Positions 11,941 to 15,549 are shown, counted from the stretch's first letter. The stretch: 64,000 nt of DNA from Pseudanabaena sp. FACHB-2040 (GCF_014696715.1 NZ_JACJQO010000010.1:62001-126000), one strand, 5' to 3'. A program made the numbers and translations. The notes: generated by a model not told the origin, from the letters alone.

Positions 11941-14900
11941 CTAGGTCTGATCTTGAATCATCCGTACCTGCCGCGACGGGCCAAACACCTGGTCAATGTT
12001 TGAGACCTCTAGAACGTTGTCAGAGAGCATGGTAGACACCTTCAAACGGGTGCCGCCCTCCATCGGGACATTAAACCGCCGCCGAATGGTTGAGCCGTTG
12101 ATGTTGGCTTCCACCTCGACCTGGGCATCCACCCGATCGCTAGCGGGCATTACATCAATGCCGCCTAGACCGGGGCGCAGATTGAACTGCAAGTTGCGAT
12201 CGCGACTGCCCGGCAGCTGGTTGATCTTAACCTTGATGCGATCGCGGCCAACCCCCAGCTTTTGATCAATCTCCATTTGCATCAGCTTGTCGCGATCGGG
12301 CTTCACTTGGAGCATATTTTTGCTGGTGTCCATGTCCTTACAGGTGACTTCCGTTTGCTCGGCTGTTGCCATCCCCGAAGTCATCAGGAACTGGTTTAGC
12401 CCCTGCTTGAGGGCATAGCGGAACTGACCATCGCGCACCCCGCGCACCTCATGTCGGAAGTCTCCTAGCCGATTTGCCTGCACAGCATTGACTAACATTT
12501 CGCGGGTCGCGGGCTGCAGGCTTTCGAGCACCGCCGGATCGTTCACGACCCGATGCAGCGTCCGAGCTTCGATTAGCTCAGTGGGCAAGGGGTCGTTGCG
12601 CACTGCGTCCCGAATTGCGCGCAGACCCCGGCTGTCTGCCAGTTCCCCTAATGCCAGGTGGGAGAGAACTGCTGGGGAAACTGCGCCTGCCCCTAGCACC
12701 ACGTTGTTGTTCGTTGGGTTCATGCGCATCAGCAGTTCACCTGCCACCGTGCCCTTGCCCTGAGACTGGTCATAGCCCTTAAAGCCTACAAAGTAGCCGT
12801 TGAGCGGGCGACCATTTTGCAGCTGACTAGTGGCGCGACTGCCAAACGCATTGATGTCGTTGCCATTCAAGTCAGTGATGCTGGCGGTTTCGGCATCGTC
12901 ACCCAAAATCAGAATCGTACCCGACAGAATCAGCAGAATAGCGTCCCAGATGGGCGTGCGTGGAGCCGTGTTGAGCGCGCTAAAAGGCATATAGTGCAGC
13001 CGTCCGCCACTCCAAGCCCCGCCGCGGTACGTGCTATCCCCCATGTACTCAAAGGTGTTGTCATCGGGGTTGACCGTCAGCGTCCGCAGTTGGTTAGGGA
13101 AGATAGGATCGCAAATGGTCATCTTCCAGGGCTTGGTGCTGCTGTCCCAGCCCACCGGCAAAATGCAGTGAGGTGCGCCACTGAAGTTGTAGTTTTGGGC
13201 CACACACAGCACCGGATGATTGCCCCGATTAAACTCCGCCCGTGTGCGGTTAAATACGTCCTTCGGATCGTGAGTATTGCCGGTGACAAACTCCTTCATA
13301 AACCACCAAATGGCGCTGGCCCCCACTTGATAGCAATGCTTCACGTTGAGCTCAGGCCGCACCGTATTCCAATCAGTAAAGCGGTTCAGCGGCAGCGAAA
13401 ACAGGCTCGAATTTTTGCGGGCATAAATCGCCTCTAGCGACATGCCAAAGCAGTTGCCGTTTTCCGCCAGGTCTTTAACCACCAGCTCATAAAAAGCTTT
13501 TTCTAGCCAATCCGTTGCGTCCCACCATTCGGCTTCGCTATCCACGTCAGAAAAGGCACTGGCGTACTGCGAATAAGACAGGTTATCAGTACCCCGGTTC
13601 ACCACACCCCAAAACTTCTCAGTCTCCGACAGGCTATTGATATTTACCTGCGGCTTCACCGAAGCCATGATGGCGTTGATCCTGCTAAAAGCGCCTGAGT
13701 TCAAAATGCCGCCATTTTCCCGCAGGCCCCAAGCGTTGGCCATATTGAGCACTTTAGTCCAGGTGCCAATATGGTCATCGTTGCCGGGGTCAGCGTCCCA
13801 CACGTCTACCGTCAGCGTCACGGTTTTGTTGACGTTGGGCGTGATGACGTTGGGAATCGTGAGGTTGAGGTCAATGATGTTTTTGTTGCCGAAATCACCA
13901 TCGGAGGGATGCCGTTTGCTGTAGAGCGTGCTGCTTCCTTCCTGCAGCGTAACTTTGACATAAATGTCGTTTTGACCCATGCCCCACCCTTCGGTTTCAT
14001 CGGTGTCAATGCGGCCAATAAAGACCTTGAAGGGACGAGCAATAATGATGGACGACCCGCTGCCGTACCAGAGCAAGCTGCCCGTTTGAAAGGTGTTATG
14101 GCGGCCTGGAGAGGCCCCTGGAATGTCCTTTTCGTCGGAGGTGGGGAAGCCTAGTTCTCCGGCCGGGCCGCCTAAATCTAGATACTTCCGGCGAATATCG
14201 CCATGCACTTCAAACGTTCCGGTTTGACCGCTCCAATACACGGTGCAGTGCTCAAACTCGGAGAACTTGCCCACCACGGCACCGTTCTTTCTCACGTCTG
14301 ATTCATTGGTGATGGGAAAGCCCCATTTGCTAGGACCGCCCAGGGTTAAATACTTGGTCAGAATGTTGCCGTGGACTTCGTGGGCGTTGGTGTCGCTGTC
14401 TTTGAAGTACATGCGGCAATTCTGAAATTCCTGCTCCAGGCCACCCGCAATCCGTTGGGCTGCTTTAGTAGGGAACCCCAGCGCCCGGGACTCTCCCAGC
14501 GCTTCGTAGTCTAGGTAAATCTGGCCGAGCACAGGCACTGCGCCGGTGTTGCTAGACCAGTAGATCGCTCCTTTCGAAAAGATGCTCTTGCGTCCATTGG
14601 GGTTGGTTGCTTTTTCCTCGTCGCTGACCAGGTAGCCCAACGCCGTGCGATTGGGCATAGCCTGGTACTGAGTGTAGATACTGCCATGGATCTCAAAGGC
14701 GGCCCCAATGCCGTCGTGATACATCAGGGCACCCTTGTCGTAGCGCTGCACGTAGGCGTCAATGGCCTGGTCATAGGTGAGGGCGCTGGCGGCGGCTCCC
14801 AGGTTATGGGTTGCGCGGAGAGACTCTAGCTTGTGGGTGATAAACCATTCGGGGTGTTCCCGGCGCTCGTCCAGGGCGGCCTCTAAATCCTTGGGAATGC

Positions 14901-15549
14901 CCGCCAGCCACTGAACAGCAGCAAATTTGCCGTCAAAGTGGTTGCGCTGGCCATCGACCCAGGTGCCAATGTATAGGTCAGAGCCCGCCAAAGGCTCTAT
15001 GCGCCCTTGGGGAAAGGCGTGAACCGATACGATGCGCCCGTCTACAAACAGCGCCACCGTGTCGATGTCGTACACCAGATCGGCGGTGTACCACTGGTTT
15101 ACCTTAAGACCTGTCGCAAACTGGCTGGTTGCTGCTTGCCACCCGTGGGCTTTGGGGGCAACGGAAGCCACCAGATCGAAATCGGTTGTTCCTGCCCGGG
15201 GCGTTAGAAATAGAGCAAAGGGCAGCCGGTTTGATTCAATCAGGTTTTGGCGTTGGTCAACTGGGCCATTGGCCTGGAACACAACGCGCAGAGTGAATTG
15301 GCGAAAATCAACGGCCAGGCCTGCTACCTGCACCGATGCCCGCCCGTTTTTGCCCATGTCAACGGCTTTGGGATAGTTGCCCAGAGGGGTCATTCTAGGG
15401 CCATCTGTGACGGTTGCGGACTGCACCAGGGTGGTCAGAGAGCCACCTACATCGGCTGCGGCTGAGTGTCGAATGGGGGTTGCCAGAGAGCCATCAGGAT
15501 TGGAGAGCTGAAGGCTGTCAAACGTAAAGTCAACGAGTGTTCTTACCAT
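11941..15549 (-). CDS. Large LamG / LGFP-repeat / papain-like peptidase protein
   Basis: A 1202-aa modular protein not recognised as a named family. In order: a concanavalin/LamG-like beta domain at about 1-225; four LGFP-type repeats at about 285-495 (for example YLTLGGPSKWGFPITNES and YLDLGGPAGELGFPTSDE); a C2-like or beta-sandwich region at about 500-610 (DIYVKVTLQEG, VDVWDADPGNDDHIG); a papain/C39-like segment with Cys700 in NGNCFGMSLEA, His794 in APHCILPVGWD and an Asp in ICDPIFP; one hydrophobic stretch near 860-875; and a 300-residue C-terminal part with two beta-rich regions. No N-terminal signal peptide is visible. LGFP repeats are known from actinobacterial wall proteins. Peptidase activity is inferred from the Cys/His/Asp arrangement only. 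Confidence 0.75.
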   Translation of the reverse strand: MVRTLVDFTFDSLQLSNPDGSLATPIRHSAAADVGGSLTTLVQSATVTDGPRMTPLGNYPKAVDMGKNGRASVQVAGLAVDFRQFTLRVVFQANGPVDQRQNLIESNRLPFALFLTPRAGTTDFDLVASVAPKAHGWQAATSQFATGLKVNQWYTADLVYDIDTVALFVDGRIVSVHAFPQGRIEPLAGSDLYIGTWVDGQRNHFDGKFAAVQWLAGIPKDLEAALDERREHPEWFITHKLESLRATHNLGAAASALTYDQAIDAYVQRYDKGALMYHDGIGAAFEIHGSIYTQYQAMPNRTALGYLVSDEEKATNPNGRKSIFSKGAIYWSSNTGAVPVLGQIYLDYEALGESRALGFPTKAAQRIAGGLEQEFQNCRMYFKDSDTNAHEVHGNILTKYLTLGGPSKWGFPITNESDVRKNGAVVGKFSEFEHCTVYWSGQTGTFEVHGDIRRKYLDLGGPAGELGFPTSDEKDIPGASPGRHNTFQTGSLLWYGSGSSIIIARPFKVFIGRIDTDETEGWGMGQNDIYVKVTLQEGSSTLYSKRHPSDGDFGNKNIIDLNLTIPNVITPNVNKTVTLTVDVWDADPGNDDHIGTWTKVLNMANAWGLRENGGILNSGAFSRINAIMASVKPQVNINSLSETEKFWGVVNRGTDNLSYSQYASAFSDVDSEAEWWDATDWLEKAFYELVVKDLAENGNCFGMSLEAIYARKNSSLFSLPLNRFTDWNTVRPELNVKHCYQVGASAIWWFMKEFVTGNTHDPKDVFNRTRAEFNRGNHPVLCVAQNYNFSGAPHCILPVGWDSSTKPWKMTICDPIFPNQLRTLTVNPDDNTFEYMGDSTYRGGAWSGGRLHYMPFSALNTAPRTPIWDAILLILSGTILILGDDAETASITDLNGNDINAFGSRATSQLQNGRPLNGYFVGFKGYDQSQGKGTVAGELLMRMNPTNNNVVLGAGAVSPAVLSHLALGELADSRGLRAIRDAVRNDPLPTELIEARTLHRVVNDPAVLESLQPATREMLVNAVQANRLGDFRHEVRGVRDGQFRYALKQGLNQFLMTSGMATAEQTEVTCKDMDTSKNMLQVKPDRDKLMQMEIDQKLGVGRDRIKVKINQLPGSRDRNLQFNLRPGLGGIDVMPASDRVDAQVEVEANINGSTIRRRFNVPMEGGTRLKVSTMLSDNVLEVSNIDQVFGPSRQVRMIQDQT

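What the first reader, a model, noticed from the sequence alone, without database searches (positions are those of the whole stretch)
11941..15549. 1202-residue modular protein: LamG, LGFP repeats and a papain-like Cys/His/Asp centre
The order LamG-like beta domain, four LGFP repeats, a C2-like part, then a segment with NGNCFGMS (Cys700), APHCILPVGWD (His794) and ICDP is unusual in a cyanobacterium. LGFP repeats are known from actinobacterial wall proteins, and papain-like domains of this Cys-His-Asp type occur in toxins and in peptidase/transglutaminase-like domains of exported proteins. There is no signal peptide, so either export is non-classical or it acts inside the cell. The gene lies in an accessory stretch. 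Whether it is an effector or enzyme is not known.
Basis: partly seen in the sequence, partly recalled or inferred. Interest (0 to 1): 0.68.

Follow-up and report, generated by a model that had tools for sequence, protein, structure and literature searches.

The report
Leaderless lectin-C2-papain-like protease family
This cyanobacterial gene encodes a large mosaic protein that joins sugar-binding modules, a probable calcium/membrane-binding C2 domain and an undescribed papain-like enzyme; the whole assembly recurs, without an export signal, in a few bacteria of four phyla, which suggests a horizontally passed, perhaps injected or lysis-released, effector enzyme.

Summary
In detail: a 1202-aa ORF on the minus strand (15549..11941) with Laminin_G_3, four LGFP repeats, a C2 domain, a Cys700/His794/Asp814 segment and a beta-rich C-terminus. 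The architecture recurs in sparse cyanobacteria and in Chloroflexi, betaproteobacterial and Nitrospira MAGs, under purifying selection, with a tree and GC pattern that imply lateral transfer. The papain-like reading is supported: the AF2 core retrieves papain-like proteases weakly, profile comparison links the segment to an uncharacterised exported lipoprotein family (96%; unrelated control 0.6%), and Cys, His and Asp are invariant across both. The 'C2-like' part is a true C2 fold (Z about 10.5) with most calcium-ligand aspartates. No signal peptide is possible where checked. Contractile-injection sheath genes occur in 10 of 12 carriers, confirmed as eCIS clusters in three, one on the gene's own contig. 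Best reading: a leaderless, lectin-armed, calcium-responsive papain-like peptidase acting after release or injection. Delivery and target are inferred.

The parts
11941..15549 (-). whole gene, 1202 aa, leaderless; ATG at 15549, stop at 11941-11943
   Evidence: homologues start at the same Met
14845..15549 (-). N-terminal LamG / concanavalin-A-like domain (residues 1-235; Pfam match 70-213)
   Evidence: Laminin_G_3, 27.3 bits whole protein, 31.5 bits as a segment
14065..14697 (-). four LGFP repeats (about residues 285-495)
   Evidence: PF08310, E 6.4e-46, 4 stretches; PDB PS1 LGFP domain 6swz E 2.7e-29
13717..14043 (-). C2 domain (residues 503-611); putative Ca2+ ligands Asp528, Asp585, Asp587, Asp591/592
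   Evidence: AF2 pLDDT 60-87, C2 folds at Z 10-11; profile matches synaptotagmin-1 C2, E 9e-4; Pfam C2 15.9 bits, below its cut-off
12910..13716 (-). papain-like catalytic domain (residues 612-880)
   Evidence: AF2 and fold searches; hhalign to exported family prob. 95-96%
13450..13452 (-). catalytic Cys700 codon (NGNCFGM)
   Evidence: invariant in the 9 leaderless and 11 exported members aligned
13168..13170 (-). catalytic His794 codon (APHCI)
   Evidence: invariant in both families
13108..13110 (-). catalytic Asp814 codon (ICDP)
   Evidence: invariant in both families
11944..12852 (-). C-terminal region (residues 900-1202), beta-rich from about residue 1030
   Evidence: AF2 pLDDT 60-85 for residues 1031-1191; no Pfam match; conserved across phyla

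Best explanation
The gene encodes a leaderless, horizontally transferred mosaic enzyme. LamG plus four LGFP repeats bind glycans, a C2 domain docks on membranes when Ca2+ is available, and a papain-like Cys700-His794-Asp814 centre cleaves (or acyl-transfers) peptide or protein bonds at that surface. It is made in the cytosol, where Ca2+ is low, and acts after the cell lyses or after delivery by a contractile injection system, so it works as a conflict or defence effector rather than as a housekeeping enzyme. Shown: the modules, their conservation as a unit, the invariant triad, the absence of a signal peptide, the patchy lateral distribution. Inferred: Ca2+ gating, glycan ligand, peptidase chemistry, release route, target.
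For: Same domain order in members from four phyla; strong purifying selection. Papain-like hits head both PDB comparisons although the model is weak: staphopains, IdeS, GtgE; T6SS effector BtaeB C-terminal domain, Z 6.2, 4.0 A, 113 aligned. Cys, His and Asp invariant over 20 aligned proteins of two families; hhalign 96% against 0.6% for an unrelated control. C2 fold Z 10.7, 3.5 A, 120 aligned to cPLA2 C2, with the GQND-Y and W-D-x-D...DD-x-x-G ligand pattern and synaptotagmin profile hits. No signal peptide possible in the window and G013 copies. The tree unites window and G009 with a Chloroflexi copy, and Nodosilinea copies with Nitrospira/beta copies; gene GC 60-63% against 51-56% flanks in the Nodosilinea group. 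Sheath genes in 10 of 12 carriers; eCIS confirmed in own genome, Nitrospira G461 and G445, where it shares the gene's contig. Sheath association 8/8 carriers vs 13/52 non-carriers, p 8e-5, and 6/6 vs 5/17 within one genus, p 0.005, uncorrected for relatedness.
Against: No activity data. AF2 of the catalytic domain is weak (mean pLDDT 49, pTM 0.51) and Z 6 alone could be a common arrangement. No eCIS gene lies next to the window gene (different contig), two carriers show no sheath (G458, G460), and related strains inflate the association; the sheath classes were set by hand after seeing the data. In the window copy the first loop-1 Ca ligand of synaptotagmin is not an Asp. In Nitrospira the gene heads a cluster of cytosolic-looking enzymes, which fits an internal role.
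Confidence: 0.4

Rival explanations
1. It acts inside its own cell as a Ca2+- or damage-triggered protease in regulated cell death or anti-phage response; LamG and LGFP serve as intracellular protein- or glycan-binding modules.
For: Leaderless where checked; the two invariant Cys pairs of the exported relatives, likely disulfides, are absent; in Nitrospira L039 the gene is followed on the same strand, 123 bp downstream, by patatin, a TM protein, C11 clostripain and two CHAT proteins, all leaderless by inspection; cyanobacterial Ca2+ surges and a Ca2+-sensitive cytosolic C2 domain are described for syNOS (PMC12922734).
Against: The cluster is seen once only; the cyanobacterial carriers have the gene alone. 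LamG and LGFP are typical of surface proteins. PADLOC has no match for the protein.
Confidence: 0.27
2. It is an envelope or extracellular housekeeping enzyme exported by an unrecognised route and held on the wall by LGFP repeats.
For: LGFP domains of C. glutamicum MytA bind peptidoglycan-arabinogalactan (reported in PMC11299179); catalytic-domain relatives are lipoproteins.
Against: Present in few genomes, so not a housekeeping function in the clade; no signal, no secretion gene beside it.
Confidence: 0.15
3. The Cys-His-Asp centre is not a peptidase but a transglutaminase, amidase or acyltransferase of papain-like fold.
For: Papain-like folds include all of these (PMC10318531).
Against: Closest folds retrieved are peptidases, though weakly.
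Confidence: 0.15

Closest known systems
Exported papain-like lipoprotein family (L043/L047 type; Chloroflexota and another class of the window's phylum; also Rhodococcus plasmids), undescribed in Pfam/NCBIfam
   Same: homologous catalytic domain with the same Cys, His, Asp; beta-rich C-terminal part
   Different: signal peptide or lipobox, two conserved Cys pairs, no LamG, LGFP or C2
Staphopains (MEROPS C47) and IdeS-like papain folds
   Same: papain-like fold in fold search; order Cys, His, then Asn/Asp
   Different: no detectable sequence similarity; not joined to LamG, LGFP or C2 (from memory)
Calpains (MEROPS C2), including bacterial ones (PMC4631099)
   Same: papain-like peptidase joined to a C2 or C2-like domain, Ca2+ theme
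   Different: no PF00648 match; third residue Asp, not Asn; C2 precedes the peptidase; LamG and LGFP added
MOA chimerolectin of Marasmius oreades (PMC8244254)
   Same: lectin joined to a Ca2+-dependent papain-like protease
   Different: fungal, other lectin type, metal sites at the protease domain; no homology tested or claimed
MytA/PS1 of Corynebacterium (6swz, 6sx4)
   Same: LGFP repeats, E 2.7e-29
   Different: mycoloyltransferase catalytic domain, exported
eCIS-associated toxins (PMC8213781, PMC11297309)
   Same: leaderless large proteins in genomes with eCIS
   Different: not beside the eCIS cluster here; no eCIS_core (PF13699) domain; delivery untested

Membership tests
Papain-like cysteine peptidases (clan CA) | ordered catalytic Cys, His, Asn/Asp | tested here: met
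   C700, H794, D814 invariant in two families
Papain-like cysteine peptidases (clan CA) | papain-like fold | tested here: inconclusive
   AF2 pLDDT 49 overall, core 62-92; papain-like proteases top the lists, Z 5.5-6.2; below the Z 8 guide value
Papain-like cysteine peptidases (clan CA) | peptide-bond hydrolysis | not testable with these tools
   needs an assay
Calpain family C2 | Peptidase_C2 (PF00648) sequence match | tested here: not met
   no Pfam match to residues 600-885 at E up to 10
Calpain family C2 | Cys-His-Asn triad | tested here: not met
   third residue is Asp in all 20 aligned
C2 domain | eight-stranded C2 beta-sandwich | tested here: met
   Z 10-11, 104-127 residues, rmsd 2.5-4.7 A to many C2 domains
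C2 domain | Ca2+-ligand aspartates in loops 1 and 3 | tested here: inconclusive
   D528, D585, D587, D591/592 present; first loop-1 Asp of synaptotagmin missing in the window copy, present in Nodosilinea and Nitrospira copies
LGFP repeat (PF08310) | score over Pfam cut-off | tested here: met
   154.9 bits, cut-off 22
Laminin_G_3 (PF13385) | score over Pfam cut-off | tested here: inconclusive
   27.3 for the whole protein, 31.5 for residues 1-283 alone; cut-off 27.6
eCIS effector | eCIS present in the genome | tested here: met
   sheath, AAA+WHD and eCIS_core genes on G000 contig 43
eCIS effector | encoded in the eCIS gene cluster | tested here: not met
   window gene on C10, eCIS on C43; nearest case G445, about 15-20 kb apart on one contig
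eCIS effector | loaded and injected | not testable with these tools
   needs particle proteomics
Polymorphic toxin | variable C-terminal toxin with adjacent immunity gene | tested here: not met
   full length conserved across homologues; no conserved neighbour shared across the groups

The most novel reading that the evidence does not exclude
A family of calcium-gated chimerolectin proteases (LamG-LGFP-C2-papain) moving between bacterial phyla as a detached payload of contractile injection systems, with a papain-like domain family not yet described.
Probability: 0.2. Interest if true: 0.75.

Novelty: new variant of a known kind. Interest (0 to 1): 0.52.

Why it matters
Canonical C2 domains are uncommon in bacteria (from memory), and a limited search of open papers found none described joined to a papain-like enzyme and glycan-binding repeats there. 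The catalytic domain belongs to a wider exported family that Pfam and NCBIfam do not cover, so one structure or assay would annotate many proteins. If the injection link holds, payloads need not be encoded beside the machine.

Tried and rejected
Phages, plasmids and viral contigs: no relative of the window protein's C2/papain-like region. Hydrophobic segment 865-883 as a membrane helix: KD mean 1.81, but AF2 gives a short helix followed by strands, so treated as buried core. Calpain membership rejected on sequence and triad. PADLOC: nothing for the protein. Viral fold library: nothing convincing. Sequence profile of the catalytic domain against PDB: only chance hits. Conserved gene neighbourhood of the exported family: none. 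The gene next to eCIS in G000 that also lies near the LGFP gene in Nodosilinea is a glycine-zipper protein, judged uninformative. thiC lies on another contig than the gene in G009, so no empty-site comparison was made.

Full report
Observation. The ORF lies on the minus strand, 15549 to 11941, 1202 aa. Pfam finds LGFP in four stretches (E 6.4e-46) and Laminin_G_3 at its threshold; the rest has no curated match in Pfam or NCBIfam. The open frame from stop to stop is 1206 codons, and 1185 codons for the 1181-aa Nodosilinea copy in G013, so a signal peptide is excluded there. Against the G009 homologue (82% identity over 1186 codons) third positions hold 547 of 808 differences and dN/dS is 0.10/1.53.

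Family and distribution. Whole-protein relatives with the same order were found in 8 of 63 genomes of the window's family, counting the window's own. In a phylum sample 2 of 386 matched, of which one is the own genome and the other only the distant exported type. A scan of GTDB genomes gave nine named loci: Nodosilinea, Tildeniella and filamentous cyanobacteria, a Chloroflexi MAG, a betaproteobacterial MAG and two Nitrospira MAGs. Translations show LamG-LGFP-C2-papain-like-C-terminus in these (L013 is cut by its contig end, L014 has a broken 5' part). A Nitrospirota sample of 118 genomes held only the known carrier. G009 also holds a diverged copy without LamG (L007) and a 44-codon C-terminal fragment (L008). 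The tree groups window and G009 with the Chloroflexi copy, and the Nodosilinea group with Nitrospira plus beta, with strong support; the Nodosilinea-group genes have 60-63% GC in 51-56% flanks. This implies lateral transfer, more than once in cyanobacteria. No copy was seen on plasmids, phages or viral contigs.

Catalytic domain. AF2 from ten sequences gives a weak model (pLDDT 49, pTM 0.51) whose better part, model residues 160-260, shows the strand-His, strand-Asp order that follows the Cys helix in papain-like folds. Foldseek and VIA-align both put papain-like proteases on top: staphopain, IdeS, GtgE, and the BtaeB C-terminal domain at Z 6.2, 4.0 A, 113 aligned, 12% identity. Z 6 is below the level the tool calls safe, so sequence evidence was sought. 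A profile search met a lipoprotein in another class of the same phylum (L019); its relatives are found in 4 of 18 genomes of that class and 10 of 201 Chloroflexota, most with an N-terminal signal or lipobox (read by eye). hhalign of the two alignments gives 95-96% probability, E 4e-8 and 1e-9, while the C2 alignment against the same profile gives 0.6%. In a joint alignment of 9 leaderless and 11 exported members the Cys, His and Asp are invariant. The exported family has two further invariant Cys pairs that the leaderless family lacks.

C2 domain. The second model (residues 492-1202, pLDDT 53, C2 part 60-87) matches C2 domains of cPLA2, extended synaptotagmin, dysferlin, perforin and cyanobacterial syNOS at Z 10-11. 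A profile of this part hits only synaptotagmin-1 among the significant PDB sequences (E 9e-4). Asp528 (GQND), Asp585, Asp587 and Asp591/592 match the usual calcium ligands; Asp528, Asp587, Asp591 and Asp592 are invariant in 12 sequences, Asp585 is mostly Asp or Glu, and the first loop-1 Asp of synaptotagmin is missing in the window copy. syNOS shows that a cyanobacterial C2 can bind Ca2+ at 1.6 uM, and internal Ca2+ surges are reported for cyanobacteria (PMC12922734).

LGFP and LamG. LGFP of MytA is reported to bind peptidoglycan-arabinogalactan (PMC11299179). In the window's family LGFP occurs in 10 of 60 genomes, mostly through this gene; one other LGFP protein, in G440, also looks leaderless.

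Context. In cyanobacteria the gene stands alone, between thiC and small ORFs in the window. In Nitrospira L039 it is followed, 123 bp downstream on the same strand, by patatin, a small membrane protein, C11 clostripain and two CHAT proteins with overlapping or close reading frames. Because the protein has no export signal, contractile systems were checked. Sheath (PF04984) is found in all eight carrier genomes of the family; the full-length type, classed by hand, in 8 of 8 carriers against 13 of 52 others (p 8e-5) and 6 of 6 against 5 of 17 in genus g13 (p 0.005). These p values ignore relatedness and a choice made after seeing the data. Of twelve carriers in all, ten have a sheath; Chloroflexi G458 and Nitrospira G460 show none, both being MAGs. 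eCIS clusters with sheath plus AAA+WHD and eCIS_core are confirmed in G000 and G461, and AAA+WHD plus eCIS_core beside tandem sheaths in G445, the last on the same contig as the gene; G459, G025 and G439 look like CIS clusters by gene order and sheath similarity. G000 also has a prophage-like sheath locus, so a sheath hit alone is not eCIS.

Mechanism. The least strained reading is a protein made in the cytosol, inert there for want of Ca2+ and target, which after lysis or injection attaches to glycan and membrane and uses its Cys-His-Asp centre on proteins or peptides. The fungal chimerolectin MOA, a lectin joined to a Ca2+-dependent papain-like protease (PMC8244254), is a working analogy; no homology is claimed. 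The internal-role rival rests on the Nitrospira cluster, the absent Cys pairs and the missing leader. The data do not decide between them.

Novelty. Every module is of a known kind, but the catalytic family, its exported sister family and this combination are not covered by Pfam or NCBIfam, and the open papers searched did not describe them. New variant of a known kind.

Noticed in passing
L039:316-8415 (Nitrospira MAG, G460:C354): Same-strand cluster of two CHAT proteins sharing a repeat-like linker (GGQVIG..NRREGD..GNQ.NVA), C11 clostripain, a small TM protein and patatin, downstream of the LamG-LGFP-papain gene; looks like a conflict or cell-death module.
   Followed up: partly
L043, L047-L054 and relatives: Widespread exported papain-like lipoprotein family (GGHCEGMA...GGHAITP...YDNNxPG) with no Pfam or NCBIfam model; stands alone in genomes, also on two Rhodococcus plasmids (L084, beside Tn7-like transposition genes) and joined to delta-60 repeats in L053.
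   Followed up: partly
L008:1498-1626 (G009:C6): 44-codon C-terminal fragment of the gene next to a transposase-like ORF and a copy of the PEP-CTERM-like neighbour found beside the intact gene in L033: remnant of a duplication.
   Followed up: no
L110 (G000 contig 43): The window's genome has an eCIS cluster with sheath, AAA+WHD ATPase and eCIS_core protein, and a separate prophage-type sheath on contig 42 (L109).
   Followed up: partly
L063:545-2533 (G440): Another LGFP protein in the same cyanobacterial family, 662 aa, apparently also without a signal peptide.
   Followed up: no
L014:6401-10064: In Nodosilinea WJT8-NPBG4 the gene appears broken in its 5' part (two overlapping frames).
   Followed up: no
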